DNA of 64,000 nucleotides from Bremia lactucae (taxonomy: Eukaryota > Oomycota > Peronosporomycetes > Peronosporales > Peronosporaceae). Under the pieces are notes generated by a model that worked only from the letters and a program-made list of their open reading frames with translations, was not told the origin of the DNA and ran no database searches. This document shows positions 1-60,620 of the stretch, piece after piece. The stretch's first letter is position 1. Each line of letters starts with the position of its first letter. The translations under genes were made by a program, and so were the position numbers. The stretch is taken from assembly GCF_004359215.1 (NCBI RefSeq), contig NC_090627.1, positions 32,168-96,167 of the forward strand. Reading direction: 5' to 3'.

Positions 1-1155
1 CTGAAAGTAGTTCGAAGCCATGCTTCCACGCATTGGACCGGAAATGCCCACCCATGTCGAAGACGACGCAATGCTACACTTTCCCTTTGCGATGGCCCCG
101 GCAAGCAAAAGATTCCCAAGTGAGTGCGCAATGATTATCGTGTCGGCAATCTCCCTCGTTTTACTGCCCCCGTTCACTGCAAGTATCCGGTCACACACTT
201 CCTGCTGCAACGCATCGTCGGTCCACGCGGTGCCCATTGTCGATTGGATGACAAAAGTCTTGGAAGAACAGCATGGAGAATGATCCGTTAAATTCCCCCA
301 ATACCTTGGCGAGACTGGAATCAAACCATCGCCATGCACTCCCTCGTACCGCAAGCCATGAATAAATACGCACGGGCGTATAGTGGACTTGCAGGAACAT
401 TTATGATGCCTCGCCGAGAAATTAAAATTGGCGAGAAAGGCCCTTAGCTTTCTACTATCGCGAAGTGTGCGCTTGCCAGTAAGCAAAGATCGTCCAATGG
501 TAGTCACGGAAGCTGGCGATGCCACTGTCTCGCATGTACCGTTCGCTTTGGTAATTTGCTTGTACCTTCTTTCATGCTTCTTTAAATACTTGACAGTTAT
601 GGTCATGTCACTTCCGTACAGTGTGAAGCCGGATGACTCTGCAAAACACAGACCCAGTTCGACTCCATCAATTGAAATCTTGAGCGTGGTTTCACTCGAG
701 CACTTAATTGTACCACTGCTATTAGATGAATTGCTCGACACGGGTTCAGCTTGATTAATAGCGTTAATAATCGCGTTTATAGGTGGCGTGACTCCTGTAT
801 CATCACATTCTACCCCAGCGTTTAGACCATTGTCTCTCAAAGAAACGTGAGAAGCATACGCTTTGCCTTCGACAACCATATACCTGGAAAGGGTCGAACC
901 TTCTGTGAATGTAGCGACTGTATCATACATAATACTGTCGATACCTTTGTAGGTTCGAGAGAGAACAGGAAACGCAAGCACGGAAAAGTTCGCGTAGCCG
1001 TGGATGGCCATAGAGCTGCGCTTTATCTCAAAATGGAAAGCCAACGTCGGCCAATTCAATGTCATTTCATTCGCAAGAATTTGACCATCGCTTTGAGTCC
1101 GAATCGCAAAAACTAACGGCACCACTATCGCTGTGAAGAAAGCATTTGGAAGCAT
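1..1155 (-). CDS. Secreted serine-hydrolase-like protein, 3' end cut by window edge
   Basis: One uninterrupted reading frame of 385 codons runs from ATG at 1153-1155 to the window edge; no stop is reached, so the C-terminus is missing. An in-frame TAA lies directly upstream of the ATG, which fixes the start unless there is an upstream intron. Residues 1-20 form a hydrophobic signal peptide (MLPNAFFTAIVV...). Residues about 25-230 are an unrecognised extracellular-type region rich in Ser/Asn with possible N-glycosylation sites (around 142-147). From about residue 255 there is an alpha/beta-hydrolase-like part: strand plus oxyanion motif CVFIHG (262-267) and a nucleophile-elbow-like AHSLGN with Ser345. 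Cysteines at 253, 255, 262, 295 and 296 fit a secreted protein. The acid and His of a triad are not identified. Lipase or esterase activity is inference; family unknown to me. Confidence 0.72.
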   Translation of the reverse strand, partial: MLPNAFFTAIVVPLVFAIRTQSDGQILANEMTLNWPTLAFHFEIKRSSMAIHGYANFSVLAFPVLSRTYKGIDSIMYDTVATFTEGSTLSRYMVVEGKAYASHVSLRDNGLNAGVECDDTGVTPPINAIINAINQAEPVSSNSSNSSGTIKCSSETTLKISIDGVELGLCFAESSGFTLYGSDMTITVKYLKKHERRYKQITKANGTCETVASPASVTTIGRSLLTGKRTLRDSRKLRAFLANFNFSARHHKCSCKSTIRPCVFIHGLRYEGVHGDGLIPVSPRYWGNLTDHSPCCSSKTFVIQSTMGTAWTDDALQQEVCDRILAVNGGSKTREIADTIIIAHSLGNLLLAGAIAKGKCSIASSSTWVGISGPMRGSMASNYFQ

Positions 1156-5029: not shown

Positions 5030-6925
5030 GCAAAATTCATGGCAAGATGCTCGTTATCATGCACTAATTAATTTCGCTCAGCTGGCTGCAGCTGACGCTA
5101 CTGAAAGCAGACGATACGCTCTGCGCCGTCAGTGCCATTAGGCCTCAACTCACAGCCGATTGCAAAATCGCTGGGGTCACAGGCGACATGAAATGGTCTT
5201 CCCTGGTCTTCAATCACCAAGATCGACGATTGCATCAAGCTTGAATCAATATCTTCGAAAGAACGGAGAAAAACGTTTGAAGACCACGTTACATTCGCTT
5301 ATGTAAACAAGAAATACGCACTGTCATTTCAGCGTAGTTGCGCGAGTATTTCTGCAAGTACGACGCTAGCACAACGAAGTTTCGAAGTCACTTGACATCG
5401 ACTAGTCTATAATTGTGTTGATTTTTTCAGGATTAGGGCGTACATCGTGTTTCCTCACGATGCAGCCAAGAAGTGATTATTCACTTGCCGCAAATAAACA
5501 TGCCTTAAGGTTGGTGTACGTCTTATGCGCACACATAAGTGTAAGAACATTACGAGTGTGGGTAAAATGTACCTCATTAACCGGTTTTTCATTTATAGCC
5601 CGACTAGAAATGTATACATCGACAAACAACTTAATGCGATATCAGCTAGAACAGATTGGTAACATGATTGATGTAGGAATCCCTTGCCACTCTCGCAGCA
5701 TACCGTTTAAGGTGCTTACTGGAATATCCTGCTCACGCGTTAGGAACTGAATGAACTCATCTATTAGATCCATCGACGTCCTTCCTCGATGTCGGCGTTT
5801 AAGCCGGTACCGTTGCAGCAATTTATTTATTAAATGCATGCACTATCCGTCATCCTCCTGTGGCCTTACGCACACAAAAGGTTTGAGAGCTATGTGGGGA
5901 GATTGACTCTCTCACATGACTCGCTGCGAAGCGATAGGAAAAAGATCTTTTTACTCGTTAGTTCCTGTTTATGAGGTGTGACTACTGCTTCATGACGCAG
6001 CATTATAACGTGGTTTCAGGTCGATCACGTGTCGGGTACATTTATACTTAGACAACTCGCATGGTAAAAATTCTGGAAAACATCCATAGATTTGATCAAA
6101 TTCTCATATAAAGGATTTTTTCTCAAGCAATTATTATGATTGAGACGTAAGACATTCAATTTGAGTCTTCTCATCGCGAATGTTTCGTCCATCGGTGAGC
6201 TGATGAGAGCATGTGAAATATATTGGTGATCGGATATTAGCCACGTACTCACCTCCTGTGACGAGTACGCAAATCCAACTGACTTTGCGACTACGCATAT
6301 TGCGCAAAAACTGTCATGGCTCTAACGTTAACAACTGATTTAACCTCAGAGTTAGCTTCGGAGGCACATCGGATCAAGTGTATAAGAGCCTGCACATGCT
6401 TCAATATTAGCCAAGGGTTCAACGTCTCGGATTCTTCCGGAAAATTTAATTTCACAAGTTTTTGGGGACTTATTTCCTCAGGTTCTTTGGAAACTATTTC
6501 CTTATTTATTTGGGGAGCACCGTCCCTAACTGCCTCGAGCCGTGGTTGAGCAACACAGCGAGATCCTTAACGATCGACTCTACCGTTGATCTAAGATTTT
6601 GCACTGTCTCTTATCAACAGGATTTTAATACTTTTCTGGATGTTGCTCTCTAGACAAGCATCCTTGTCCCGGTCTACTCGACTTACTCGAGTGGTGGATC
6701 CTCGACGCTGCCTTAACTCCATAGTGATATAGGTGATCACACTAAGGACTTGTGCAGTCGCACTAGCTTCCGAACCACAAGTGAGGCTCCAGCAGTCACT
6801 CGTAGTGCATCCACACGCTGGAGGAATCTTCAGACGCTCAACAGATGGCCATCTGATGAACAAGATGCAGACATCGAAACAGATCGATACTGCCAATATA
6901 TGCATGGCTCGTTTTTCTTAGGCAT
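5030..6925 (-). mobile_element. Family A fragment: RNase H, RT and linker, broken
   Basis: In minus orientation the order is linker (6925-6025), RT N-terminal part (about 6000-5840), RT (5839-5400) and RNase H (5400-5030), collinear with A2 33230-35300. Recognisable pieces include the RT frame at 5642-5839. Many stops and frameshifts. No LTR is attached on either side. Confidence 0.6.
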
Positions 6926-13732: not shown

Positions 13733-14382
13733 ATACTTCGCGGATACGTCCACTTTTTAACGAGTTAAAGTGAGTTCTTGCCGATGGGAGATTTCGCAAT
13801 CAACAAGTCAGTGCATACTTCTACAAAGCATACACCGATTTTCGTGAACGGCTTCCGCCATTCACGTATTCCCACCTTGTTAGAGAGTGACTCTTCCTCA
13901 AAGCGGGGAGGGACTCGCTCGATCAAAAACCTTTCTACCTTCTGCTCATTTTTAATCAACATTGAAGTGGACAAATTTAATGCCATTGCGGACTCTAATA
14001 ACGATGCGGAAAGACTCACCATCGAAGACAATGATACTATTAAAAACAATAATGCTCTTCCTAGGGAGGAGTGCAAGCCGGTCGCATTGAAAGCAAAAAC
14101 AGAACCGAGTCAGCAGGTGATGTCCTGCTGGCTAGAGAAGCAGTGGTCCGCTTCGCACAGGATTCCATCGCTGACGCGGTAAATCGACATAAACGAAACT
14201 CTAACAATAATGGAAGAGCCAACATTCTTTAATTTCATGTTAACGAACTAGTCCTTCTGGCTACGATAAGTTTACCAAAGCACGTAGTGACGAATGTTTA
14301 CAGTGATAAACACTGCCCATGTATATCGACCCTTTCCGTGCACTGCACCGCCAAGGCAATGCAAACACGATCGAGCTGCCTC

Positions 14383-16110
14383 GTAGGATGAGTACGCATC
14401 CTACGTTTTACGTTAGGCGTCTCCGACCGTACCATCAGTACGAGGCTTCTTGCGATTTCAGATTACACCAGAACAGTCAAGAGCATCAGCCAAAGCCTGA
14501 TGGATCCGAGCCAAAGACTTATTGTCTCGGAACAGGGTTTAATTCTCTTGAACCAGACTATCCGCTCTTTGCTCCAAGGAAGAGATCTTCCGACGAGCTG
14601 TCAATATTTCGTTTTAAAGGGACTGATGAGTCCTTTCGTTCGCCAGTTGTTCAGTCGCAATCTGCGCACAACTTTTCAACTGGTCACGAGAAACATTATC
14701 GACCGCCAGCGCTAACGCGCGGCGATGGGATGGCTCGTGATCAAGAACCGACCTCAGTGGCCGAGTGGTTAAGCACTGGAACTGGGACCGGGAGGTACGT
14801 GGATCGATACCCGCGGAGGGCGGTACGATGATATATCGCCGGAGATAGGCTAAAAAGCAGACGAGCAACCATCCAATGGAGGGCCGCCCTGCCAACCCGC
14901 ACCGAAGGTGTGTGATAGTTAGGTGGGAGGAGGCCCTGTAGCCGAAATTCCCCATAGTGTAATGAGGGGTGCGGGGTTTCAATAAGAGAACTTCGTCAAA
15001 ATTGAATCTCAAGATTCTCCCTTAAATAATAAAGGGTGTGATCCAAATCACGATGAGAATCGGGCTCATCAAACGAGGCGAATCTAATCTTTCCTCCCCT
15101 CTTCATCAATTGATGGATTCAGGTGGCGAGAAGCCCTTCTTGTTGAAAGTTTCTTGAGCCACTGTCAGGCAAAGGGGGTCGAACGAGTAACTCGTTCGTT
15201 GCCGAGGGTATCCGCCCTCGCATGATAGTTGAGAACCTCGTGGCCAACTGATGTTGGACGCTCCGGGTCTGGTCTTGCAGTACGACGAGACCCATCCTCC
15301 TCGGCAGAAGGTCCATCGGAGATCGAGCGCTTCCCGCGCTCGTAAAGGTTTGGAGGTTCTCAATCCCTTGACGCATCTCGTACGAGACGAAAGTCCTCCA
15401 ATGGAGGTCTTTGAGGGAATACGCATCAAAAGGGACATGACCTGCACCCTCAAAACAGCATGGGCATGAGCCCCCCAGGAAAGGCAAGGAATCCCTGCCT
15501 TTCTAGACAAACGGTGCAACTCATAGCGTGCACCGACTACGGTTCGATACTTAAACCGTTTACGAAAAGTATTTAGCTTGTCAAGCCAGACCCCACGACC
15601 TATGTTTTGTACATTCTGTACAAAGGCTGCCCAAGCTTGGAACAATGGTTTGACATCCTTTGCCCGTTTGCAAGTGTACCAACGATGCCGGTAAAAGGCA
15701 TCGAGGAAGAATTCTGTTTCATCCTCACCAGGCTTGTGTAGCCTGGATGAGTCGAATAACGGAATATGATAGTGATCGTCGGTCATACCAGACGTGGTCA
15801 TCGGCCTCGGAGTCATCTGATGATGACTCCCCACTAAAAAAGATCTGACGAGTTGAATAACCTCGTCATCACCTCTTAAGTAGTCATGTTAAAACCCAAA
15901 GGTTTAACGGACTCGGGCCCGGGTGATCCGGCGGTCTCACAGTCGCCACTGAGTCGGGCGAAGCAGCTGACTTGTCCCCGTCACCTGCAATGTCATCAAT
16001 AGATGACATACCCCCGTCACCTTTAATGGGAGTAGGAGGTGACACATTCCTCGCGGTAGACGCATTAGCGTCTACTGAACATTTGCCTTACTGATAGCTA
16101 CACTTATCCG
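14383..16110 (-). pseudogene. Antisense extra ORF of A1 (aORF-A)
   Basis: Runs opposite to gag-pol. N-terminal part at 16110-15800 (Ser/Asp-rich, SSDDSEADDH). A long open stretch 15834-15106 contains DETEFFLDAFYRHRWYTCKR, LFQAWAAFVQNVQNIG and FRKRFKYRTVVGARYELHRL. A neighbouring frame (15487-15119) continues KDLHWRTFVSYEMRQGIENL, conserved in A3. The C-terminal part (about 14700-14500) is a coiled coil (DQLKSCAQIATEQLANERTH, LLTARRKISSLEQRADSL). The SINE at 14746-15008 sits between these last two parts. Function unknown; no match to Gag, protease, RT or IN. Frameshifts make this copy defective. Confidence 0.6.
14746..15008 (+). mobile_element. tRNA-derived SINE inserted in A1
   Basis: Absent at the same site in A2. 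Internal pol III promoter: A box TGGCCGAGTGG (14758-14768) and B box GGATCGATACC (14801-14811), 32 nt apart, in a tRNA-like head (D-arm GGCCGAGTGGTTAAGC). A non-tRNA body follows to about 15008. Short target duplication TCAAG(A) on both sides (14741 and 15009). About 260 bp, no coding capacity. A functional tRNA is excluded because the stems do not pair and no acceptor stem is seen. Confidence 0.65.
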
Positions 16111-21208: not shown

Positions 21209-21282
21209 CTAGTCGCGTTTTCTTTCTTCTTCCGTGTTTATATTTAATGCCTGACGGATGCCAATGACAGAATCAATAGATG
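21209..21282 (-). pseudogene. Gene X, C-terminal piece
   Basis: Directly outside the left end of B1 a minus frame reads SIDSVIGIRQALNINTEEER and ends at TAG (21209-21211). Reading from the other side of B1 (28673 upward) gives FIKKFGAT just before it in the same frame once one T of a TTTT run is ignored. The flanks AGATG and TTATG look like a damaged target duplication. It is the end of a host gene split by B1 and A2. Confidence 0.55.
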
Positions 21283-21753
21283 TGTAACGGGCTAAAGTTG
21301 CCCAAGTTACACAATCCCCGTTAAGTACACTTTGTTTGCTTAAGGGTTTGGTCAATTACTTTAGTGAAGTAATTAGACTCACTACTTGAGTAAGCTCACA
21401 TTGTACCCACCACTTGGGTATGGCTCAAATTGTACCCACCACTTGGGTACGGTTCACATTGCGACCCACCCTTGTGTATGTGATGCACCTCAGGGCATTC
21501 ACGTTAACGGGGATGACGGCTCGCGTCATCCAAGAAACGAGGTATTTAGAATAATACGCTCGCAGCACAAATCAGTGCATATCTACAGAGATTTCATTTA
21601 TGATTGGTTAAAATAGGTTCTATTTTTATTTTAATACGATTAAATATAAACCAGTCTGAGAACTACTTTCTAGTTTACAAGTGAACACGTGGAGCCCGGT
21701 TACTGCTTCCTCACTGTGCCTGAAGGTGTGTGCATAAGTAGAGCGCCTTCCCA
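21283..21753 (+). mobile_element. 5' LTR of B1
   Basis: Starts TGTAACGGGCTAAAGTTGCC; collinear with 28160-28672 (CCACTTGGGT, GATGCACCTCAGGGCATTCA, CAGTCTGAGAACTAC). Includes a short tandem triplication of CCACTTGGGTA at about 21409-21450, of which the 3' LTR has fewer. The 3' end is shortened relative to the 3' LTR. Confidence 0.75.
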
Positions 21754-25569: not shown

Positions 25570-27060
25570 TCACCTGCTGTTAGATCACTTCGGTGGACGA
25601 AAGATAACCCTTCCGTCGCACCTGAAGGCTAAGCTAAATCGCTTCAGTTTCAGCGATGGCCTGTAATGGCATCAGCTGACACCTTGTGATCCCTTGAAAA
25701 TCTACGAGCCTCATGACACAGAACTCAAGCTGATGATCCTTCACGAGCTCCATGATGCGCCATCGAGTGGGCATCTGGGCCGCGAAATTTTTTTTTAAAA
25801 ATGCCGACATAATTTTAGTGGCCACACCTACATCGAGGTGTTGCCAACTATATTCGCTCCTGCGAACAGTGTCAGCAAATTTACACCATACAACAGTGCG
25901 CCATTGCTTCCGCTACCGATTCCAACGGATTGTTGGAAGTCGGTTATTCATGTTTGGCATGCCGCCCGACCACAAGGGTTGAGGGGCTCGTCGTCTTTGT
26001 AGACAGACTGAGCAAAATGGTGCATTTACCACCATGTAAGACATCGATCACAGGCAAGGAGGCAGCTCTCTTGATCTTATATCATGTATACCGACTACAC
26101 GGGATGCCCGAGTACATAGTATCGGACCGAGATCCACGTTTTACATCCGGGTTTTGGCGTCATGTGTTTGAGCTGCAAGGTAGCAATTTCCACATGTCGA
26201 CCGCAGGTCATCCCCAGACCTCTGGTCAAATAGAACGTGCCAATCGGGTTGTGGCAGATGTATCACGCACGATAGCGACTCCAAAAGAATGGAGCAAAAA
26301 ATTGCCCTTCGTGATGTTTAGTATAAATAACAATGTCCACGCCAGTACGAGTGTTACACCTTTTTATATAAACGGACTGCGGCATCCTCGGACGCCAGTC
26401 TCGTTCGTGCGCAGCCCGAGTCTTAGTGACGGAGGGCCCCTCTTTTTGCTCGGTGCGAAAGAGGGATGCAATTTCGTGACGATGACCCACGAGGATATCA
26501 TCTCAAAGACTGAAATTTGCCCTAGTGATCCTGCTGGTTTGGCAGTGGTAAGTATAGAGTCACGGCAAGGATGCCTGTGCATTTGAACAATAACGATGTT
26601 CGTTGTTGACAACTACGTCCTATAACGAACATCTCGGCGGTGTCAGCGGCGAGTTGATGCTAAAAGCGTGAGCGAGCTCAACGCTTTGTGGATGAGTGAT
26701 TAGCCATCACACGTAAAGTCGGTGACGCGGTAAGTGCACCGGATAAGCGAAAACAATATGCAGACCAAAATGGTCGCAAAAACAATGAACGCTTTAGAGT
26801 GCGAGAAAAAGTACTATTAAGTACTGCTTACCTAAAATGCAGTTTATGTACTACCTGGAGGTACTACAGAATTATTGCCGCGTTTCATCGCGCCGTTTAC
26901 GGTGGTCGAAATGGTTGGAGGCCAAAGTTATAAGCTTATTCTGTCCCCGTATAAGAAGACGCACGCCGTCTTTTACGTGGGTCGTCTGAAAATATATGTT
27001 GATCCAGAAGAGATCACATACCCCATCCGTCTAAGGAGACAGATGGTGACGCCGACAGTG
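25570..27060 (+). pseudogene. Integrase of B1
   Basis: H2C2 part 25730-25890 in several frames (HELHDAPSSGH, RSCEQCQQ). Core in the open frame 25930-26586 with first Asp in VVFVDRLSKMVHL, second in VSDRDPRFTSGFW, and Glu in GQIERANRVVADV, so the DDE set is intact. C-terminal region 26700-27060 (PRFIAPFTVVEMVG, FYVGRLKIYVDPEE). Frameshifts between parts. Strand transfer enzyme in intact elements. Confidence 0.68.
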
Positions 27061-28024
27061 AGTCGAGCGTCGATCGGGTGTGGAGACGGGAGGTGCAGTA
27101 CCGCCCATGATTTCTTTCACACGCAAGCGAGCGAAGTTAATTTTAAATTGCTGCGACTGTTGTATCGCCACATCGGAATGTGGCTGAAAGCGGCGCAGGA
27201 AGTGGTTGATTCATTTTAATGCAACACTACCGGGATCGAGGAAACGCGACGACCAAGTTGTTTTCTTTAAGCCTTCCACGAACTATAGGTGCCGTAATAA
27301 TTATGTGCATCTGAATAGCGCGCTCTAGGAGCGACACACTCGAAGGTGGCATTGGTGGTTCGCATAGCCACGTTCAATGCGAGGGCTTGTGACACCGACT
27401 GGACACGTTCACGTGCCGTCGGTGGAGCTTTACGCTCAGGCTCTTCTGCGTCAGACCCAGTGTGAACGATGATCTGAACGACAGGTGTTGTGGTTCTGCC
27501 CAACTGAGAAGCAGCTGCAATTATATGGGCAGCGCTCTTACGAATGGTCACTGCACTAGCTAGCGCAGACGACGAGACAGTTGCTTTGTTGGCGTAAGGC
27601 AAGTTGGCTCTGCAAAGTTGGGCGTCTTCATGTTAGGAGCAATGGGTGAACTTTGGATTGGCAATAAAGCGCCATCATCCTTCCTCATTAGCTTGCTGTA
27701 CTCATCACTACTATGTGAGGTGATGGCATCGGTGTCGACACATTGTAGTCAACAATGAGCGACGGATCTACGTCCACACTGTAAACGTGGGATGGCATCG
27801 GTGTCGACTCATTGTAGTCAACAATGAGCGACCGATCTACACATCCACACAGTAAAGTTGGGTGAATCTGTAAGTCCAGTTAGCGCGACAGCAGTAGTAG
27901 CTGTCGGCGTTGCAACTGTGGCACTAAGCGACGGCGGCGTATTAATGCGGCGCTGACGCTTCATGCGTGGTTGTGAGGGCATCTTTGCAGACGACCCATC
28001 ATCTTTGCCCCTCCAAGGTGGCAT
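27040..28024 (-). pseudogene. Antisense extra ORF of B1 (aORF-B), shortened
   Basis: ATG at 28022-28024 next to the 3' LTR: MPPWRGKDDGSS, PSQPRMKRQRRINTPPSLSA; farther on, HSSDEYSKL and ALLPIQSSPIAPNMKTP in other frames, then NFARLRVKEIMGGTAPP near 27150. The same order occurs on B2 (58741-60370, opposite to its integrase), with matching residues and differing third positions. Compared with B2 about 520 bp containing the coiled coil are deleted. Frame broken at several points. Function unknown. Confidence 0.58.
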
Positions 28025-28159
28025 GGCTGGCGCTGTGTGAGGGCACACAGGTCGCTAGAGTGACTGAGAGAACTAGAGCGGCGCGTTAAGCAGCTCGCTG
28101 TCCCTCGTTCCTCTTTGACGAATTTGCAAAATGAGAATTCGCTCTTAAAGGGCAGATGG

Positions 28160-29018: not shown

Positions 29019-29440
29019 TGCAACTGACCCCTTTTACTAGTACTGATAAGTACCATTTAACCTTACACTGATTACAGTGTATATGAGGTGACTCGAAACT
29101 TCACGTACACAAGGGTACAGAGGAAGGTTTCTATGAAGCTAAGGGTATTTAGCTTAAAGGTCTAAACTAAGGCTTTTTAATAAAGAGAAGTAAATATATA
29201 TATATATATATATGTTCAGTTTCCTACATCATGATCTTCTATCAACTACTGAACTTATTATATTCGTAACTAACTAAATATGGCGCCTCCTTGCGCAACG
29301 CACAATGTGTCTTATAACGATTGGCAGGGTTGACTTTAAGTTAAATTAATAATGACTGATTCGGGTGACAGGGAATACTTTAATGTCGCTCTCTGTAATT
29401 TTGCATTATTGATTTTATTAAAAATTCCAATTTTGTTGCA
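29019..29440 (-). mobile_element. 3' LTR of A2
   Basis: Minus-strand match to 37023-37517 over its 3' part (CCTTAGTTTAGACC, ACCTTCCTCTGTACC, CACTGTAATCAGTGTAAGGT). The U3 end is too diverged to place exactly. Contains a (TA)n run. Confidence 0.65.
29194..29213. repeat. (AT)n microsatellite
   Basis: Ten uninterrupted AT units inside the 3' LTR of A2. The 5' LTR has no such run at the same position, so it expanded after insertion. Confidence 0.8.
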
Positions 29441-31018
29441 TTATCGATCTTTGTTCGGAAATCCGTGCGTGTCGGCCGTGAGGCCGCAAAGCTGACAGCT
29501 GCGCGGATCAGGTCAGCTGCTGGAAATGCAAACGTTTCAGTAGACGCTGATGCGTCTACTGTGGGGAATCTGCTCTGACTGGAACTTGTCATCTGTTGAT
29601 GCATTGCAGGTAACGGTGACAAGTCACCTGCTACATTAATTGTATATGACCGGTCCAAGTCACCGTCTTGCCCGACTCAGTGGCTACTGTGACGACCGCC
29701 GGATCACCCGGGCCCGAGTCCGTTAAGCCTTTGGGTTCTAACGTGACTACCAAAGAGGTGATGACGAGGTTATTTAACTCGTCGGACCTCTTTGGTGGGG
29801 AGTCATCATCAGATGACTCCGAGGCCGATGACCACTCTGGTGACGTTTTTAGTATGCGTCACCAGGAACAACGTGGTCGCGAAGGAAAGAGTACTGGTGG
29901 TGGGGCTAGCTTGCATTACCTGAGAAGGAGTGAATGTAGTGATCGCTCCCAGGGCCAAGCTAATGTTAACGTTAACATGATCCAACAGGAGAGGGACCGC
30001 AATACGTTGCGGTTCGCTCCTGAAAAGAGGCCTTGGTCACCCTCTAAGAGATACCTCATTCGTTGGTCTGGTATGACCACATGACCTGCACCCTCAAAAC
30101 AGCATGGGCATGAGTCCCCCCAGGAAAAGGCAAGGAATCCCTGCCTTTCTAGACAAACGGTGCAACTGATAGCGTGCACCGACTACGGTCCTATACTTAA
30201 ACCGTTTACGGGAAGTATTTAGCTTGTCAAGCCAGACCTCACTGCCTATGTTTTGTATATTCTGTACAAAGGCTGTCCAAGCTTGGAACAATGGTTTGAC
30301 GTCCTTTGCCCGTTTGCAAGTGTACCAACGATGCCGGTAAAAGGCATCGAGGAAGAATTCTGTTTCATCCTCACCAGGCTTGTGAAGCCTGGATGAGTCG
30401 AATAACGGAATATGATATTGATCGTTCCCTTAGGAAGCGTATTCCCTCAAAGACCTCCATTGGAGGACTTTCGTCTCGTACGAGATGCGTCAAGGGATTG
30501 AGAACCTCCAATCCTTTACGAGCGCCGGAAGCGCTCGTTCTCTGATGGAGGTGGATGGGTCTCGTCGTACTGTAGAACGAGACCCGGAACGTCCAACATC
30601 AATTGGGAACAAGATTCCCAACAATTATGCGAGGGTGGATACCCTCACCAACGACCGAGATAACTCGTTCGAACCCCCTTTACCTGAGGGTGGCTCAAGA
30701 AACTTACAACAAGAAAACGCTTCTTACCACCTGAATCCATCAATGGATAAGGAGGGGGGGAAGATTAGATTCGCCTCGTTTGATGAGCATGATTCCACAT
30801 CGTGATTTAGATCACACCCTTTATTATTTAAGGGAGAATTATGATCACGAGCGACCCCGTCGCCGCGCGTTAGCGGCGAAGTCGATAATGTTTCACGTGA
30901 CCAGTTGAAAAGTTGTGCGCAGATTGCGACTGAACAACTGGCGAACGAAAGGACACATCAGTCCCTTCAAAACGAGCTATTGACAGCTCGTCGAAAGATC
31001 TCTTCCTTGGAGCAATGA
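29396..31018 (+). pseudogene. Antisense extra ORF of A2 (aORF-A)
   Basis: Opposite to gag-pol. N-terminal stretch 29396-29548 (VGREAAKLTAARIRSAAGNA), then open 29668-30084: PDSVATVTTAGSPGPES, SSSDDSEADDHSGDVF, GGGASLHYLRRSECSDRSQ and KRPWSPSKRYLIRWSGMT. At 30081 an inverted block starts (separate entry); its minus strand holds the expected continuation. From 30426 the plus frame resumes: EMRQGIENLQSFTSAGSARS in 30485-30805, then a coiled coil ending SSLEQ and TGA at 31016-31018. Protein-level agreement with A1, A3 and A4 shows that it was coding. Unknown function. Confidence 0.6.
30081..30425 (-). repeat. In-place inversion inside aORF of A2
   Basis: The block matches 15475-15775 of A1, but relative to its flanks it is reversed. 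Left edge: GGTATGACC joined to ATGACCTGCACC; right edge: GGAATATGATATTGATCG joined to TTCCCTTAGGAAGCG. In A1 the same sequences run straight through. On its minus strand it still encodes FLDAFYRHRWYTCKRAKDVK and KYRTVVGARYQLHRLSRKAG. Confidence 0.7.
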
Positions 31019-32235
31019 GCGGATCATCTGTTCAAGAGAATTAAACCCTGTTCCAAGACAATAAGTCTTTGGCTCGGATCCATCAGGCTTTGGCTGATGC
31101 TCTTGACTGTTCTAATGTAATCTGAAATCGCAAGAAGCCTCGTGCTGATGGTACGGTCGGAGACGCCTTACGTAAAACGTAGGATGCGTACGCATCCTAC
31201 GAGGCAGCTCGATCGTGTATGCATTGCCTTGGCGGTGCAGTACACGGAACGGGCCGATATACCTGGGCAGTGTTTCATTACTGTCAAGATTCGTCACTAC
31301 ATGTTTTAGTAAGTTTACCGTAGACATTAGGACTAGTTCGTTAACGTTAAATTAAAGAATGTTGGCTCTTCCATTATTGTTAGAGTTTCGTTTATGTCGA
31401 TTTACCGCGTCAGCGATGGAATCCTGTGCGAAGCGGACCACTGCTTCTCTAGCCAGCAGGACATCACCTTTTGACTCGGTTCTATTTTTGCTTTCAGTGC
31501 GACCGGCTCCCACTCTTTCCTAGTTAGAGCATTATTGTTCTCAATAGTATCATTGTTTTCGATGCTGAGTTTTTCCGCATCGTTATTAAAGTTTGCAATG
31601 GCATTTAGTTTGTCCACTTCAATGTTGATTAAAAATGAGCAAAAGGTAGAAAGGTTTTTAATCGAGCGAGTCTCTCCCCGCTTTGAGTAAGAGTCACTTT
31701 CAAACAAGGTGGGAATACGTGAATGGCGGAAGCCGTTCACTTAAAACAGTGTATGCTTTGTAAAAGTATGCACTGACTTGTTGATTGCGAAATCTCCCAT
31801 CGGCAAGAACTCGCTTTTACTCGTTAAAGAGTGGACGTACCCGCGAAGCATATTCAATTCGATTAAATATAAATCAGTCTTAAAACTACTTCCTAGTTAG
31901 CAACACAAGTGCGCACGTGAAGCCCGATTACCTCTTCGAAGATACGGTTTGCACGCTCCGTCTGACCATCTGTTTTAGGATGATCAGAAGTTGACATTTT
32001 CAAATGTGTTTCAACTGATTTGAACACAGTTTGCCAAAATTTTGCCGTAATTTAGGGTCTCGATCCGAGACTTGTTCACGGGGAAACCCATGGAGTCGAA
32101 ATATCGCGTCAACAAAGGCAGGAGCACAGCCTTTGGCTGTGATCGACCTGTATACTGCAGCAAGATGTACGATTTTGCTGAAACGATCAGCACAAACTAG
32201 AATACTAACATTCTTATGATGGTCGTCGGGAAATC

Positions 32236-37022: not shown

Positions 37023-37517
37023 AGTACTGATCATTACTAATTAACCTTACACTGATTACAGTGTCGATGAGTTGCCTCAGCACTTCTTTTACAGAAAGGT
37101 ACAGAGGAAGGTTTTTATGAAGCTAAGGGTCTTCGGCTTGAAGGTCTAGACTAAGGCTTTAGAATAGAGAAAAAGTAAAATTGTATTAATACATTTAGTT
37201 TCCTACGTTACGATCTTATATCTACTACTGAACTTATTGTATTTATAACAAACTATGTATGTATGGCGCCTCCTCGCGCACCGCACAATCGTGACTTGTG
37301 GTGTTTGGAAGGGTTGGTATAAAGTCAAACTAATCAATGAATAGAACCAATGTATTTTTGCGTCAATATTACAAAATTTGATAACATTGGAACTATTTGA
37401 GTCAAAATTAATAAAAATAAGAATTTTGTATTTCTTTATTTATTTCGTCTCATGGCAAAAAAAGATAATATTCCTCGTATAGGAAATAATATCTATGCAA
37501 CAGGACACCCCGTTACA
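37023..37517 (-). mobile_element. 5' LTR of A2
   Basis: 495 bp, begins TGTAACGGGGTGTCCTGTTG at 37517 (minus) and ends near CAGTACT at 37023; the usual CCCCGTTACA end and primer site are deleted at the border with gag. Confidence 0.72.
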
Positions 37518-39097: not shown

Positions 39098-41179
39098 CCT
39101 GGTAGCGCTTCCATCCAACATGGACATGTTATATGAAGAACGAGGGAGCTTTCAAGCCCCTCCAAAAACCTTACACGCAAAGCATACAAGGTTCACTGAT
39201 TGGAGTAACCTTGAATGGAGAGCGGTCGAAGTTTGAACTTGCCGTAAGCCGGGCAGCCGTTAGCGCCATGTAGTCACGTCAGCTTCAACCAGCTAGACGC
39301 AATTATCCAATGCATGACAAGGAACTCGATGCCATAAAATCTACAGTGGCTAAGTTTGGGTCTACCTCTTGAAGGATAGACCGTTGATTGTCTAAACGGA
39401 CCATGCTTATTATTGCCCGGCCGTTAACAGTCCACACCTCTTGCAAAGAATGGCGAGATGGCGGTCTTTATTCGCAGAGTATTACTTCGCCTTGGAATAC
39501 AAACCAGACGATATATTGTCGTCGCTGATGCCCATTTGCGGCGGCCCGATTTTGAGCTGGCTGAGCAAATCAACAGTGAGCATGAGCCTACTGTTGCGAC
39601 GATAAGTGTTCCGTCGTCAACATTACTTGGCGACGTAAGAAGAGTTTATTAAAAAGACAAGAGTCTAAAAGGGTTGATAAATTACCTTAAAAATCACACA
39701 ATATTTGAAGGATTGTAAAAATTGTAATGGTTCTCAACGGATCGATACACAACACGCAATAGGTTACTGTATTGCACAGCCGTTGCTGGCGACACACCTC
39801 ATGTCGTTATCCCCACCCATAGTGATTTGTGTTTACGCATCACCAATAAGTGGTCATCGTGAACGTGAAAAAATTATCTGACGATAAGTCGCGACTCTTA
39901 CTGGCCACGCCACTATGAGTTCGTCCGTGAGTAGATAGGTTCTTGCGAAGTTTGTCAACTGGTGAAGCCCAGTGCTTCATACCGTGCTTCATTACGACCT
40001 CTGCCTAGTGTTGGCGATTCGTATCTATAGACTTAATATTAGGATTTCCCTAAGACGATCACAAGATCAATGGTATTCTTGTGTTTGTTGATCGTTTCAG
40101 CAAGACGGCACATCTTGCTGCAGTTCCAGAATTGAGCACAGCCAAAGGTTATTCTCGTGGCTTTGTTGAAACGATATTTCGACTCCAATAGTTATCCCCT
40201 GAACTAATCTCAGATCGAGGCCCCTGGTTCACGGCGCGAAGATTTGGCAATCTGTGTTCAAATCACTTGGAACACAGTTGAAAATGTCAGCTTCTAACCA
40301 TCCGGAACCAGATGGTCAGACGGAACGTGCAATTCGTATCCTCGAAGGAATACTTCGCGGAAACGTCCACTCTTTACGAGTTGGAGCGAGTTCTTGCCGA
40401 TTGAAGAATTTGCGCAATCAACAATTCGTTGTATGCCTCAACAAATTATGCACCGCTTTTCGTGAATGGCTTACGCAAGCCACGTATACCCACCTTGTAT
40501 ATGAGTGACTCCTATTCAAGGGAAGCACTTGCTCGAGCAAAGAACAATCTATCCCTTCCTCATCACGCATTGACTCAACAGTAAATGCGGACAATACCAA
40601 TGTTGATTTAATTAATATTGAAGTGGGCTAACTCAGCAATAGCGATTAGGCTATTGCTGACTTTGATAACGATGCTGAAATGCTTAGCGTCAAAAATAAT
40701 AATATTAGTGCGATTAATATGTTCTCACTAAAGAGAAGAATGACATCTCCGCAGTGACATCGGGCGCGCTGAAAATAAAACAAACCAAATCAGCATGAGA
40801 CTTCCTGCTAGCTAGAGAAGCAGCGGTTCTTTCGTACCGAATTCCACCGCTGATACGATAAACCGACAGAAATGGAACTGTGACACAAATGTGATATTTC
40901 ATTTAATGTTAATAATCTAGTCCTACTCTTTACGGTAAACCTACATAAAACGTTGTGATGAATGTGGGCAGTATTGCATTACTCTCCAGGTATGTCGGCT
41001 CGTTCTGTGTACTGCACCGCCAAGGCAACGCGTACACGATCGAGCTGCCTCGTAGGATACGAATTCTACGTTAATCGTCTCTGCCCGTATTATCAGAACG
41101 GGACTTCTTTCGGTTCCGAATCAAAACAACAGGGTGTAAGGTATCCGCCAAAGACTTATGGCCCGAATCAAACCTAATA
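39098..41179 (+). mobile_element. Element A3: internally deleted family A copy
   Basis: After the LTR only the start of gag remains (to about 39265); it is joined directly to RNase H (SRQLQPA-type motif at 39280 onward), deleting protease and RT. RNase H/IN junction 39458-39652, integrase zinc region 39780-39970 in broken frames, core pieces (ASNHPEPDGQTERAIRILEG in 40254-40508), C-terminus 40962-41177 with a shortened IN end. It lacks both the PNPase-like insert and the LTR-B patch. Confidence 0.65.
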
Positions 41180-41765
41180 ATCTCGCAACATATAATAGTT
41201 CTCACGAAACAGATGCTTTGATTCATCCTCAAATGGACTAATGTGTCTATTCGTTCGCAGCTAGATGATCAACCGCAACCTACGCATGGTTTCTCAACTG
41301 TACGCGACAACCACCGTCGACCGTCGTCGCTAACTCGCGACGATTGGAACGTTGGAGATCAAAGTCCTTCCGTATATTCCGGAGGACGTGATCCAAGTCA
41401 CAATTATAACTCGGGTTCGGCGAATAATGCGAATCTTTTTTTCTCCTCCACACCCTTTGACGATTTCAAGTGGTGAGAAGCGTTTCAAGTTGAACGCTTC
41501 TTGAATCACCGTGAGGTGAAGGGATTTTGAGCGAGTTACCTCATTCGTTGGCGTGGGCAACCACCACAAGAAAACTCGTTCCCAACTAATAATGGATGTC
41601 TTTGGTGTATGACGAGGCCCATCTTCCTCATTAGAGGGTTTTTTAAGGAATGAGCGCTTCCCAAGCCCGTAAATGGTTTGTATGCTTTCAATCCCTTCGC
41701 GCATCTCATTAGACACGCGCGTCATCCAATGGACATCTTTAAGAAAGTATGTCCCCTTACCATGC
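41180..41765 (-). pseudogene. Antisense extra ORF of A3 (aORF-A), partial
   Basis: Open frame 41725-41330: TRVSNEMREGIESIQT, TPKTSIISWERVFLWWLPTP, TNEVTRSKSLHLTVIQEAF, FSPLEIVKGCGG. It aligns with A1 (KDLHWRTFVSYEMRQGIENL) and A2 (EMRQGIENLQSF). Downstream RRELATTVDGG and QLRN match A4. N-terminal half missing. Confidence 0.55.
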
Positions 41766-41789
41766 GCTTTCGCGGGTTTTCAATTGACC

Positions 41790-42960
41790 CCACAAGTACA
41801 AGTGGTTACGCAAGTGGGTTTGTTCCTGTGAAGTTTGTCAGCGTGTGACTCGTCACAGGTCCCACTTTGCCAATTCTGATCACCACGGAGGCTTGGAAAT
41901 CCGTGAGTAGATATTTCATGTATGGCTTACCTGCCGATGCGCAGGGGCGCACCGGCAATTTAGTGGTTCTCGACCGATTTAGCAAAAAGGTGGACCTTTT
42001 GCCTGTAGCTGCGTCCATCACAGCGGAGAAGAAAGCGGCTCTCTTCCTCGACATGGTCTTCCGACATCATGGCATGTCTGCCACGATTGTTTCGGATCGG
42101 GATCCTCGTTCCGCTGCCGCATTATGGCCTCGGCTGTTTGAACTCCTCGCGTGTTGGAAGACGTGTTGCGCAGCTACGCTACATCGTTTGCATCATAGAG
42201 TGAGTTCCCCCCCATGTCCGCGTTTTTGCTAAACAACGCAGTCCATGCTTTGACAGGGTTGACACCCTTCTTCGTTAATAACGCGCGCCATCCACGCGTT
42301 CCAGTTCTACTTGCATTGACCAGCAGTTCTACTTCTGTTAGGTGAGAGTCACCAGATGGATTGGTGTCGACAGCGTCTTCACAAATAGACCTCGACGGCT
42401 TAACTTAATGTTGCACAAATTCGCGCTGCAAATCAGCGCGAGAATACCCCAGCTGCCATCGATGCCGCGACTCGAAAGGAGTCCGAACCAACTACGGACA
42501 CCGTGCAATGCTATTAGTTCCGTCGCCATGTATAGCAAACGCCGATGCGGTTCCCGAAATTATACCGTCGCAGATCGCTCGACAGTTGGACTCCACAGCG
42601 ACTGACGCGTTCGTGCACCAACTACAGTTCGTCGTGCGCTCGACGCTATCTCCTCTGCAGTCTACAAACAAAAGTCGTCGGCTGACCAGCGAGGACGTAA
42701 GAACCTTGAAAAGTTCAAGGTTGGTAATTCTGTACCACTTATAACTACTGGAATACAAGATGCGGTCACGAACCTCGGTGCCACGAAGTTGGCACCGCGA
42801 TATATGGGTCCGTTTAAAACTACTATAGTTAAAGGCGATGCCTACACTCTGGATATTTTTTCATCGATGCGATTGAATCCTACTTTCGACGTCGTCGTCT
42901 CAAGCGTTACTGTCCGGTGGTTCTTCTGACGAGGGATGATTTCTTGCGGTGGCATTTTGC
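41790..42960 (+). pseudogene. Integrase of element D
   Basis: Starts near the C-x2-C of the zinc region (CSCEVCQRVTRH), core in 41867-42232 (GNLVVLDRFSKKVDLLPVAA, ATIVSDRDPRS), then damaged. C-terminus 42700-42890: KVGNSVPLITTGIQDAVTNL, LAPRYMGPFKTTIVKGDAYT and LDIFSSMRLNPTFDVVV. Frameshifts between parts. Confidence 0.62.
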
Positions 42961-44270
42961 GGTCCCCGATACCGCGGCGGTTTCGGCAGGTCGGACTGAC
43001 GCAGCCCCCGCAACTCTGCGTTGTTTCGACGAAGAGCGGTATTTGACTGGTCCAGGCACTCCAGATGCTGTGCGAATTGAGCGACCGCGGACGAAGTTTC
43101 CTCAGCAAGGCTTTCCGCAGTCTTGGCCAGATCACGCAGTTGACTAGCATCATAATCAACGAAGACCATCCGCCGATGGACCTCTTGAAGCTTTTTCGAA
43201 CGATTTTTCGGGTTCGGCCCACCACCATTGGTTGATAGTGCGCGGAATCGACGCTGGCTTGTTGAGTGTATCAAGGACCAAAGTGACCTACGACAGATTG
43301 GTCGTGGAGCTGCTCACGCTCCTAACAGCTCCGTCCCGAAATTTCGATGTTATCGCGTTCGCTTGCTCGGCTTTTCTCCGGATCACGACTCGTGAGAATC
43401 TCACTTCTATCGGATGTTGCGAATATCTCACACGACTACGATCGTGCGGCGAGTGGGATCGCGAACGTCGGGCTGCTTCTGGCGGACATTCCTGATATTA
43501 AGCTCGGCTACGATCGCGCAGCGAGCGGGATCACGAGCGTCGAGCTGCTTCTGGTTGACGTTTCGGAACACGACTACGATCGCGCGGCGAGCGGAAGCTC
43601 AAGCGTAGAGCTGCTCGCGATGTTGGGGACTCGACGCCCGGGAACAAGTTCTTGGGTTTGGCGAAGAACCTCCACGGTCATGTTTGCTCGAGACGAAGGA
43701 TGCACGCGCCGGTATCTGTGAAGGTTCCTCCCATACCTTTTGATCAATAATCAACGGATATTCTGCAAACATCGCCGTTCATTGAGCGCGGTTTGGCTGC
43801 GCTACGCCATATCGTCAAAAGCTTCGACATCCGTCGCGCCAGTGCACAGTACAAGAAGGTCGATCCGCAGCCCATGTTAACTTGTAGACCTTCTCACGGG
43901 TCTCTGCGAGGTCGTAGCACCGCTGTCGCTCTTCGCGCATCGGCACAATATCCTCAAAAGAAGTTTTGGTATTTCACCGGCGGATGAATGCAGTCCACGA
44001 CTCGTCAAATGAAGTTTCTCTCACGGCAAGCGTAGTCACAGTTGGCTTGCCGCGTGTTCGCCTCCACCGGCACCACATTTCCCACATTTCATTGTCCCCA
44101 CGTGAGCGTTCAATCGCACGACAGTCGGACAGTTTCAAGACGCGAAGAGCTTCCCGCTTATGTCCGCTGAAAATATTGGACACCGCTTCCTGCGACGGTG
44201 TCATGGTACGCGTTCCGGTATTGTCTGTCTGGTTTGCTGGCGTGGGAGAAGTGGTGTCGATTCGGGTGCT
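42842..44270 (-). pseudogene. Antisense extra ORF of element D (aORF-D)
   Basis: Minus strand, facing integrase. N-terminal frame 44297-43974: STRIDTTSPTPANQTDNTGT, TPSQEAVSNIFSGHKREALR, ESWTAFIRR. More pieces (FEDIVPMREERQRCYDLAET) follow a stop. The C-terminal frame 43274-42900 is a coiled coil: QLRDLAKTAESLAEETSSAV, QFAQHLECLDQSNTALRRN, NAELRGLRQ, then Pro/Arg-rich KPPRYRGPQ. Same position, strand and architecture as aORF-A. Broken. Confidence 0.55.
43433..43620. repeat. Three imperfect tandem units (72, 66 and about 50 bp)
   Basis: Each unit begins CG(A/G)CTACGATCG(T/C)GC(G/A)GCGAG at 43433, 43505 and 43571 and continues CGTCGAGCTGCTTCTGG. Unit lengths are multiples of three, so both the plus frame (YDRAASGI..V.LLL.D) and a minus frame stay open. 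Lies in the middle of aORF-D. Confidence 0.7.
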
Positions 44271-58607: not shown

Positions 58608-58740
58608 CCATCCCCTCTATAAGAACGAACTTACATTTTGCAAATTTGTCAAAGAGGAACGAGAGACAGCGAGCCGCTTTACGCACCGCTTTAGTCCTCT
58701 CAGTTTCTAGAGACCTGTGTGCCCTCACACGGCACCAACT

Positions 58741-60370
58741 ATGCCACCTAAACTGGACAAAGATGATGGGTCGTCTCCCTCACAACCACGCACGAAGTGT
58801 AAGCGCCGCGTTAACACGCCGCCGTTGCTCGCCCTCACAACCACGCACGAAGTGTAAGCGCCGCGTTAACACGCCGCCGTTGCTCAGTGCCACAGTTACA
58901 ACGCCGACAGAAATGCTGCTGTTGCGCTGTTAATTGGGCTGAATGATCCATCCCACTTTCACGGTGAGGGTGTAAATCCGTCGCTCATTGTTGACCACAA
59001 TGAGTTGACACCGCTGCCATCACCTCATAGTAGTAATGAGTACAGCGAGCTAATATGGAAGAATGATGGCACTTTATTGCCCATCCAAACTTCACTCATT
59101 GCTCCTAGCATGGAGACGCCCGACGTTACGAAGGGAAAGCCAACTTGCCTTTCGTCAACAGCAACTGTCTCGTCGTCTGCGCCAGCTAGCGCAGCGACCA
59201 GTCATGCGAGCGTTGCTTATAAAGGCGCAGCTGCTTCTCAGTTGGGTGGGACCACAAAAGCTGTCGCTCAGAGCGTCATTCACAATGGGTCTGACGCAAA
59301 AAGCCGGGGCTTAAAGCTCCACCGACGGCTCGTGAGCATGTCCAGTCGGTGTCACAAGCCAGTCGCGTTTAACGTGGCTATGTGACTGGTGCCATACCAC
59401 CAATGCCACCTCCATCCGAAATACCTTAATCGGATGGAAGAAGTTCGTCGCTCCTAGAGCGCGCTGTTCTAAATATGCATAAATAACGGCATCTATAGTT
59501 CGTGGAAGGCCCATGGGAAATCACATGGTCGTGTTTTCCCGATCCCGGTCGTGTTGCATTCGAATGAATCACCGACCATTACCAAGCGAAATTTCAGCGC
59601 CGCTTTCAGCCACATTCTGTTGTGGCAAAGCAACCGTCGCAGGGACTTAACTTCGCTCATTTGCGTGTGAAAGAATTCATGGGCGGTACTGTACCCCTGT
59701 TTCTTCTACTCACATCGCTCCTGCTAGTCCATCCGTAACTAGCGAACCGACAACCGGTGCTCCTTCTCGTAGGCAGACACCAGACCCGGTACGCCGGCGC
59801 GCAGCGCGTCGACCGGTTCCAACGAGTCAACGCTCTTCGGAAATCCTCTCCACTAGACGAGGATTTTGATGCTTCCGCTGCACGGAGCGGTGGGCAACCA
59901 GTTTTTCAACAAGGAAGCGTTGGTTCCCAGCAGCATCCATCATTGCAGGTGGCGTTCAATAGGAGTGGCGACCTGCTTGCGGTAGCCTATCCCGCATTCG
60001 ATCAGTTGCAGGCGCTAAACGCTGCTGAGGGACGGATTAAGGGTCTCGAAAGTCAAGTCTCTCGACTGACTCCGTATCTTCATGTCCGCACGAAGGATCG
60101 TCACGGTTACGAACGCCTGAAATTTCGGCTGGAACTTTTGGAAAAGATGATGCTGAGAAATATGCGTTACACGCGTAATATCCTCCCCCTCGCTCTCAAA
60201 GTCCTTATTGGGGTCGGAGGAGTCATTCGGCTGGAAGTCTTACACCTTCCCCGTCTCCCTCACCAGATCGACGCTCGAGTCACAGTCGGCGTCACTAACG
60301 TCTCCTTACACGGATGGGGGTATGTGAACCCTTCAGAATCAACAAACCGTTTCAAACGACCCACGTAAAA
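58741..60370 (+). pseudogene. Antisense extra ORF of B2 (aORF-B)
   Basis: ATG at 58741 right after the LTR: MPPKLDKDDGSSPSQPRT, then a 61 bp tandem duplication (58784-58905) and KRRVNTPPLLSATVTTPT. 59005-59385: HSSNEYSELIWKNDGTLLPI, QTSLIAPSMETPDV. Then NFAHLRVKEFMGGTVP (59650-59700), Arg/Ser-rich, and in 59757-60368 SSPLDEDFDASAARS and a coiled coil (DQLQALNAAEGRIKGLESQV, LKFRLELLEKMM). Agrees with aORF-B of B1 where both exist. Broken by shifts. Faces the integrase. Confidence 0.6.
58784..58905. repeat. Tandem duplication in aORF-B of B2
   Basis: TCACAACCACGCACGAAGTG through CGCCGTTGCTC occurs twice in a row with no difference (about 61 bp period). B1 has one copy. Shifts the frame of the ORF. 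Confidence 0.8.
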
Positions 60371-60620
60371 TCCGGGGTGCGTTTTCAGATACGGGTGAAG
60401 GGTGAGCCTAAAATTCAGGTCTCCAACCTCTCCGACCGCCGTAAACGGCCTGATAAAACGCGACAATAATTTCGCAGTACCTCCAGGTAGTACAGAAATT
60501 GCATTTTTAGGTAGAGTAACAGTACTTGATAGTACTTTATCTCCAGCACTAAAGCGTTCATTAATTTTGCGACCATTATGGTCAGCATATTTTAGTATTC
60601 TGAGCGCTTGCCGTCACGTC
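60260..60620 (-). pseudogene. Integrase C-terminus of B2
   Basis: Minus frame 60466-60260: SRFIRPFTAVGEVGDLNFRL, HPYLKTHPGFYVGRLKRFVD; upstream pieces GRKINERFSAGDKVLSS. Matches B1 26720-27060. The rest of B2 pol is missing: at about 60621 the sequence changes to family A. Confidence 0.65.

What the first reader, a model, noticed from the sequence alone, without database searches (positions are those of the whole stretch)
14383..16110. Extra antisense ORF after integrase, conserved in three gypsy families
In A1 (14383-16110), A2 (29396-31018), A3 (41180-41765), A4 (45990-46440), B1 (27040-28024), B2 (58741-60370) and D (42842-44270), a protein-like frame lies between integrase and the 3' LTR on the strand opposite to gag-pol. 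Within families the copies agree at residue level through different frameshifts (for example KDLHWRTFVSYEMRQGIE against KDVHWMTRVSNEMREGIE). Families A, B and D share a plan: Ser/Asp- or Pro-rich N-terminus next to the LTR, a middle block, and a coiled coil facing the integrase C-terminus. Extra sense or antisense ORFs at this place are known from some plant Ty3/gypsy lineages; I know of none described for oomycetes.
Basis: partly seen in the sequence, partly recalled or inferred. Interest (0 to 1): 0.87.

Follow-up and report, generated by a model that had tools for sequence, protein, structure and literature searches.

The report
Antisense gene inside oomycete gypsy retrotransposons
Two large families of old jumping genes in what appears to be a downy-mildew genome carry a second long protein-coding frame written backwards against the end of their main gene; in one family the pattern of changes and relatives in other downy mildews show that it was kept as a protein, but what it does is unknown.

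Summary
The antisense frame is real. In natural copies it has no majority stop for 627 codons in family A (48 copies) and 512 in B (20 copies). In B, outside the query used to pick copies, old shared variants are depleted of amino-acid changes relative to recent singletons (ratio 0.44, p 9e-5) and rarely make stops (1 of 141 versus 22 of 482). In A this test is strong only inside the query block; outside it is weak and not frame-specific, so A rests mainly on the long open frame. The B protein has 11 database relatives, five named Peronospora. A and B proteins show no detectable homology; D is too rare to test; A4 was not recovered. [quoted passage not shown] A nuclear accessory role is inferred only.

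The parts
15014..16078 (-). A1 antisense gene remnant (broken by frameshifts): N-terminal Ser/Asp-rich part 15794-16078, middle block about 15481-15786, C-terminal part 15014-15520
14313..15319 (+). A1 sense pol 3' part: SH3 and linker 14313-14750, linker end and chromodomain 15059-15319, overlapping the antisense frame
29402..30869 (+). A2 antisense gene remnant; its middle block 30097-30486 lies inverted on the - strand
30549..31336 (-). A2 sense SH3, linker and chromodomain (chromodomain about 30555-30776)
29039..29355 (-). A2 3' LTR (5' LTR copy at 37023-37340, 78% identical)
41337..41779 (-). A3 antisense gene remnant; opposite sense SH3-linker-chromodomain 40952-41575 (+)
26929..28024 (-). 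B1 antisense gene remnant; ATG at 28024 aligned with Met1 of P0008
28154..28646 (+). B1 3' LTR (5' LTR copy 21278-21745; the two longer matched pieces are 79% and 81% identical)
58612..60406 (+). B2 antisense gene remnant
59754..60279 (-). B2 sense linker and chromodomain opposite the antisense coiled-coil part
42903..43313 (-). D antisense open frame with coiled-coil character (sub-cutoff TRIM_CC match), opposite a sense linker and a chromodomain-like stretch (43189-43392 +, by eye; no Pfam hit)

Best explanation
Chromodomain-bearing Ty3/gypsy elements of this oomycete carry an additional gene on the antisense strand. It starts about 0.1 kb from the inner edge of the 3' LTR, runs towards integrase, and its 3' part is written over the sense-coded linker and chromodomain of pol (tail-to-tail overlap of roughly 0.6-0.7 kb, codon position 1 facing codon position 1). 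Shown: location, long open frame in A and B, protein-level selection in B, relatives of the B protein in Peronospora. Probable: protein selection in A and on both strands of the overlap. [quoted passage not shown] I put 0.93 on protein coding under selection in B, 0.85 in A (lowered from 0.93), and about 0.4 on the nuclear accessory role.
For: Antisense frame without majority stop: A 637 codons (28 copies), 625 (50), 627 (48; other frames 22-44 majority-stop columns, this one 1); B 512 codons (20 copies). Natural single-copy open frame of 462 aa in B (L068). B antisense-only part, outside the query that chose the copies: shared N/S 84/57 versus singleton 371/111, ratio 0.44, p 9e-5; non-mirror frames 0.85-1.61; stops in 1 of 141 shared versus 22 of 482 singletons; with L069 left out 0.45, p 6e-5, stops 3 of 153 versus 22 of 488. 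A outside the query block: 0 of 107 shared variants make a stop in this frame versus 14 of 533 singletons. B relatives: 11 proteins, E 5.8e-163 to 2.6e-44, five named Peronospora, covering antisense-only and overlap parts. Antisense stops fewer than after synonymous shuffling of the sense ORF: L019 5 versus 13.3 (0.0005), L068 0 versus 3.9 (0.003), L069 0 versus 4.2 (0.0025), L094 0 versus 6.1 (0.00025). ATG at the expected place in 11 of 14 B rows. Sub-cutoff Pfam matches of B members include several coiled-coil models.
Against: No expression data; no Pfam match over cut-off and no convincing PDB relative, so function rests on composition. A: the whole antisense-only part gives 0.46, p 4e-6, but copies were picked by similarity to a 136-aa block inside it; in the block the ratio is 0.22 (p 3e-5), outside it 0.57 (p 0.016), and another frame is as low (0.51, p 0.008). 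B overlap ratios (antisense 0.54, p 0.009; sense 0.58, p 0.02) lie inside the B query, so the antisense one may be inflated; in the A overlap antisense is 0.64 (p 0.03) and sense 0.75 (p 0.19). The mirror frame with the same third positions gives a similar ratio in the antisense-only parts and is excluded by its majority stops (28 A; 46 B). Shuffle test: L012 not significant (4 versus 5.6, 0.22); L068 and L069 had been chosen for long antisense frames, and L094 was cut to the antisense ORF. ATG in only 14 of 31 A rows. The last part (about 100 aa) of the 390-aa L027 frame is probably out of the gene's frame. A relatives elsewhere: two short fragments (none with one query). Promoter block not clearly enriched (11.65 versus 11.40 shuffled in A, 11.57 versus 10.86 in B). 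Window copies are broken, LTR pairs about 20% diverged. Genomic context of the Peronospora proteins was not seen.
Confidence: 0.48

Rival explanations
1. Mirror of sense coding: the antisense frame is open only because it faces a sense-coded linker and chromodomain whose codons happen to avoid antisense stops.
For: Sense SH3, linker and chromodomain do lie opposite the 3' part of the frame; one of five sense ORFs shows no significant shortage of antisense stops (L012).
Against: About 1.1 kb of the A frame and 0.7 kb of the B frame lie beyond the pol stop, and the B constraint is measured there. Synonymous shuffles bring antisense stops back in 4 of 5 sense ORFs tested, with the choice effects named above. 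Database proteins conserve the antisense-only part too.
Confidence: 0.04
2. A captured host gene or a nested foreign element, fixed in antisense inside an ancestral element, now a passenger or keeping its original function.
For: No Pfam family over cut-off; A and B proteins differ, so separate captures are possible.
Against: The frame extends for about 0.5-0.7 kb across the sense linker and chromodomain in A, B and L094 in the same phase, which a simple insertion beside pol would not give. The three protein searches run gave no recognisable host-gene relative, though a host gene could hide among the unnamed Peronospora proteins.
Confidence: 0.15
3. The antisense unit matters as an RNA: an antisense transcript from the 3' LTR side regulates the element, and the protein is secondary.
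For: Position and orientation suit an antisense transcript; one 14-of-16 promoter-block match lies 112 nt before the B1 ATG (the best of 100 shuffles also reached 14).
Against: The constraint in B is specific to codon phase and amino acids, which an RNA alone does not explain.
Confidence: 0.11
4. A particle or integration accessory: the protein acts in the particle or with integrase and chromodomain rather than as a nuclear regulator.
For: It is encoded opposite the integrase C-terminus and has coiled-coil character suited to oligomers.
Against: A Lys/Arg-rich start and an Arg/Ser-Pro tail point to nucleic acids (sequence); the retroviral antisense proteins HBZ and APH-2 are described as nuclear (PMC11963269, passages).
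Confidence: 0.2

Closest known systems
Antisense additional ORFs (aORF-3R) of plant Ty3/gypsy elements: Retand lineage, maize Grande, rice RIRE2 (PMC7264820, first of three text parts read; PMC11963269, abstract, Discussion and passages read)
   Same: ORF antisense to gag-pol between pol and the 3' LTR, conserved over many copies, function unknown; nuclear localisation is reported for the Grande protein.
   Different: No TRP28 domain (PF04195) matched here at E up to 1. Retand elements are non-chromoviruses. Here the frame runs across the linker and chromodomain of pol; the word 'overlap' does not occur in the main text of PMC11963269.
Boty of Botrytis cinerea (named in PMC7264820, first part read)
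   Different: Not compared by sequence here.
Chronos, chromodomain gypsy elements of oomycetes (PMC5348765, 12 of 42 passages read)
   Same: Oomycete Ty3/gypsy with a chromodomain at the 3' end of pol.
   Different: 'antisense' and 'opposite' do not occur in the main text of that paper; the second RNase H of Chronos was not tested here.
HBZ of HTLV-1 and related antisense proteins (as described in PMC11963269)
   Same: Gene antisense to the main genes, nuclear accessory protein; coiled-coil character (the bZIP of HBZ is recalled).
   Different: Retroviral; no sequence comparison was made; the likeness is in the way of working only, and that is inferred.

Membership tests
Ty3/gypsy LTR retrotransposon with chromodomain | RT and RNase H, then integrase, SH3 and chromodomain in pol | tested here: met
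   RVT_1, RT_RNaseH and RVP_2 over cut-off, Integrase_H2C2 under cut-off in window ORFs; SH3_Tf2-1 over cut-off in B1 and B2; Chromo over cut-off in B copies L068 and L069, under cut-off in A copies L012 and L019
Ty3/gypsy LTR retrotransposon with chromodomain | Paired direct LTRs around the element | tested here: met
   A2 and B1 LTR pairs; no pair found for A1
Antisense aORF-3R kind | ORF antisense to pol between pol and 3' LTR | tested here: met
   here it also extends into pol
Antisense aORF-3R kind | Conserved as a protein across copies | tested here: met
   clear in B (22 copies), only partly in A (48 copies); share of all genome copies not measured because searches are capped
Retand-type antisense protein | TRP28 domain PF04195 | tested here: not met
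   no match at E up to 1 in Pfam-A scans
Chronos elements of oomycetes | Chromodomain plus a second, archaeal-type RNase H | not tested
   only the chromodomain was looked at
Nuclear antisense accessory protein (HBZ-like way of working) | Nuclear localisation and effect on transcription or RNA export | not testable with these tools
   inferred from composition only

The most novel reading that the evidence does not exclude
In at least two families of oomycete gypsy elements with unrelated-looking antisense proteins, and in an A-related third one (L094), an antisense accessory gene is overprinted on the linker and chromodomain of pol in one fixed relative phase, giving two proteins that constrain each other; it is an ancient regulatory gene of downy-mildew retrotransposons, working like the antisense genes of retroviruses but of separate origin.
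Probability: 0.33. Interest if true: 0.82.

Novelty: new variant of a known kind. Interest (0 to 1): 0.68.

Why it matters
Antisense extra genes of LTR elements are a standing puzzle in plants: conserved, with function and origin unknown (PMC7264820, PMC11963269). Finding them in chromodomain-bearing gypsy elements of a stramenopile, with measured protein selection in one family and an overlap with pol, shows that the arrangement is wider than plants and fungi and offers a natural case of a new gene arising on the back of an old one. If the Peronospora relatives, now deposited as unnamed proteins, lie in such elements, they would be retrotransposon genes and not host genes.

Tried and rejected
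Pure mirror artefact of the chromodomain: taken seriously once the sense chromodomain was seen, rejected. Per-phase diversity over all variants gave almost no signal, since most variants seem to have arisen after insertion; splitting shared from singleton variants gave it. A check made last showed that the A result leans on the block by which copies were chosen; the odds for A, the overall confidence, the novel-case probability and the interest were lowered a little for that reason. Homology of A and B: none by hhalign. PDB matches are weak, E 0.06 or worse. Promoter block upstream of the antisense ATG: no clear enrichment; the 16-nt consensus used there is recalled, the paper read gives the INR part YCAYTYY (PMC3599244, passages). 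IMG/VR scan with the B alignment: nothing. L001-L008, L092 and L093, meant as comparators, have integrase ahead of RT and look like copia elements; dropped.

Rows dropped before counts: L016 and L036 as near duplicates (kept); variants seen twice or below the frequency limit, and columns without a majority base; copies whose N-terminus was not found (9 of 52 A, 9 of 24 B) or with under 150 nt upstream (12 A, 1 B); L065 and L067 as duplicates of L063 and L060, and L059 as the window itself. Limits: columns treated as independent, six frames compared without correction, copies taken from the best protein hits and not at random (L068 and L069 for their long antisense frames), majority-occupied columns as coordinates, and the open spans reach the trimmed edge of the alignment (B) and 65 and include some codons before the ATG.

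Full report
What was claimed.

Where it lies. The window is C18:32168-96167 of a 116 Mb assembly in 220 contigs. Named relatives of the antisense protein are from Peronospora, so a downy mildew is likely; a Bremia-like genome is my guess from size, not a result. A2 and B1 have recognisable LTR pairs, 78% and about 80% identical, so these copies are old; none was found for A1. Window ORFs carry RT, RNase H, protease and SH3 domains by Pfam.

Is it in the sequence? Natural antisense proteins from other loci, searched against the window, recover A1, A2, A3, B1 and B2 on the strand opposite to their pol, but not A4. In the genome the A middle block has 150 matches including itself (150 scored of 4549 candidates), the B piece 151 (150 scored of 3520), the D piece 9 (16 of 16 scored). 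The first two are lower bounds.

Sense coding on the other strand. Pol does not end at the SH3 domain: a linker and a chromodomain follow. Pfam Chromo: in A copies L012 E 1.2e-4 and L019 E 0.0016, both under the cut-off; in B copies L068 E 6.5e-7 and L069 E 1.3e-9, both over it. They lie opposite the integrase-facing part of the antisense frame; in A1 at 14313-14750 and 15059-15319.

Is the antisense frame more than chance? Codon columns in which at least half of the natural copies carry a stop were counted in six frames. A (48 copies): antisense frame 1 such column, open for 627 codons; the other five frames 22 to 44. About 585 of these codons follow the ATG (L027:860, to about L027:2617). 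B (20 copies): 512 codons; 439 in a trimmed alignment of 22 copies. The sense pol frame is open over 255 codons of the A alignment, to its edge, and 689 codons in B, and overlaps the antisense frame by about 0.7 kb (A) and 0.6 kb (B). Worked out by hand from frame numbers, codon position 1 of one strand faces position 1 of the other in A, B, D and L094. In D, with 7 copies, the antisense frame is open for 233 codons opposite a sense frame of 454; farther out the D frame breaks up.

Selection. Overall diversity is nearly flat across codon positions, as expected if most variants arose after insertion. Variants shared by several copies should be older. B, antisense-only part, which lies outside the query that chose the copies: shared N/S 84/57 against singleton 371/111, ratio 0.44, p 9e-5; the four non-mirror frames give 0.85 to 1.61; stops 1 of 141 against 22 of 482; without L069 0.45, p 6e-5 (one search gave 0.45 over slightly different columns). 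The mirror frame shares third positions and ratio (0.44) but has 46 majority-stop columns. As a positive control the sense pol frame of B gives 0.28, p 3.8e-8. A, whole antisense-only part: 122/77 against 713/207, ratio 0.46, p 4e-6; stops 1 of 199 against 33 of 920. But copies were chosen by a 136-aa block inside it: within the block 0.22 (p 3e-5), outside it 0.57 (p 0.016), where one other frame is as low (0.51, p 0.008). Outside the block 0 of 107 shared variants make a stop in this frame against 14 of 533 singletons, while other frames take 2 to 18. So amino-acid selection is well supported in B and only suggested in A, whose case rests on the long open frame. In the overlap, B gives 0.54 (p 0.009) antisense and 0.58 (p 0.02) sense; A 0.64 (p 0.03) and 0.75 (p 0.19); the B overlap lies within the B query, so its antisense value may be inflated.

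A second test of the overlap. Synonymous codons of natural sense ORFs were shuffled; antisense stops in the relevant phase are fewer than expected in L019 (5 versus 13.3), L068 (0 versus 3.9), L069 (0 versus 4.2) and L094 (0 versus 6.1), fraction of shuffles as low 0.0005, 0.003, 0.0025 and 0.00025, not significantly in L012 (4 versus 5.6, 0.22). L068 and L069 had been picked for long antisense frames and the L094 stretch was cut to the antisense ORF, so L019 is the cleanest case. Two control stretches of pol show no significant deficit (0.29 and 0.19). L094, one natural copy of an A-related family picked by its chromodomain, has sense (249 codons) and antisense (202 codons) frames open together over 0.5 kb.

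Relatives elsewhere. The 462-aa natural B frame has 11 relatives of 290 to 559 aa; five are named 'unnamed protein product' of Peronospora effusa (four) or P. farinosa (one), 42-54% identical. Eight of the 11 carry the start MPPKRG or a close form (P0001 after an extension, P0006 as MPLKRG); P0004, P0007 and P0011 do not. The 13-row alignment has 23 invariant columns, nearly all in a central block, then a coiled-coil stretch and an Arg/Ser-Pro-rich end. The B1 ATG at window 28024 aligns with residue 1 of P0008; ATG stands at that place in 11 of 14 B rows, 10 of 13 distinct loci, and in 14 of 31 A rows. For A, an alignment query found two fragments of 113 and 178 aa, a single query none.

How it probably works. 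Shown: an antisense frame starting about 0.1 kb from the 3' LTR, conserved as protein in B, overlapping pol. Inferred: transcription from the 3' LTR side and a nuclear accessory role; the composition suits an oligomeric nuclear protein that touches RNA or chromatin. The oomycete core-promoter block was not found consistently upstream. No expression data were at hand and structure prediction was off.

Comparison. [quoted passage not shown] PMC11963269, abstract, Discussion and passages read). The position is the same here; the TRP28 domain of the Retand lineage is not found. Oomycete chromodomain elements (Chronos) are described without the word antisense (PMC5348765). Three searches on oomycetes, Bremia and downy mildews gave no listed title about such genes; only 15 of 43, 12 of 305 and 10 of 37 papers were listed, and most subscription journals are not in the library. 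Hence: new variant of a known kind.

Noticed in passing
window 30097-30486: In A2 the middle block of the antisense gene (about 0.35 kb) is inverted relative to the rest of the element, although the flanks continue in the expected order; a local inversion or an assembly error.
   Followed up: partly
window about 14746-15009: A1 carries roughly 0.26 kb not aligned with L027 between its linker and chromodomain, which splits the sense match.
   Followed up: no
L070:2742-3041 and 6342-6641: A 300-nt direct repeat, 97% identical and 3.6 kb apart, in or beside pol of this A copy; it looks like a younger nested LTR element.
   Followed up: no
L071:1558-1791 and 1811-2125: Tandem duplications just before and at the start of the open B antisense frame of this copy; plant Retand elements often have tandem arrays between pol and 3' LTR (PMC11963269 abstract).
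   Followed up: no
L001-L008, L092, L093: The ten fetched high-ranking integrase (PF00665) matches look like copia elements, some with very long open frames (up to 1389 aa among L001-L008), while the gypsy copies seen here are decayed.
   Followed up: partly
window 28121-28136 (-): A 14-of-16 match to a recalled oomycete initiator plus flanking block 112 nt before the B1 antisense ATG; B2 has 12 of 16 at -110. Not clearly enriched over all copies.
   Followed up: partly
L094:34-780 (+) and 266-871 (-): An A-related family with a sense SH3-linker-chromodomain frame and an antisense frame of coiled-coil look both open in one natural copy.
   Followed up: partly
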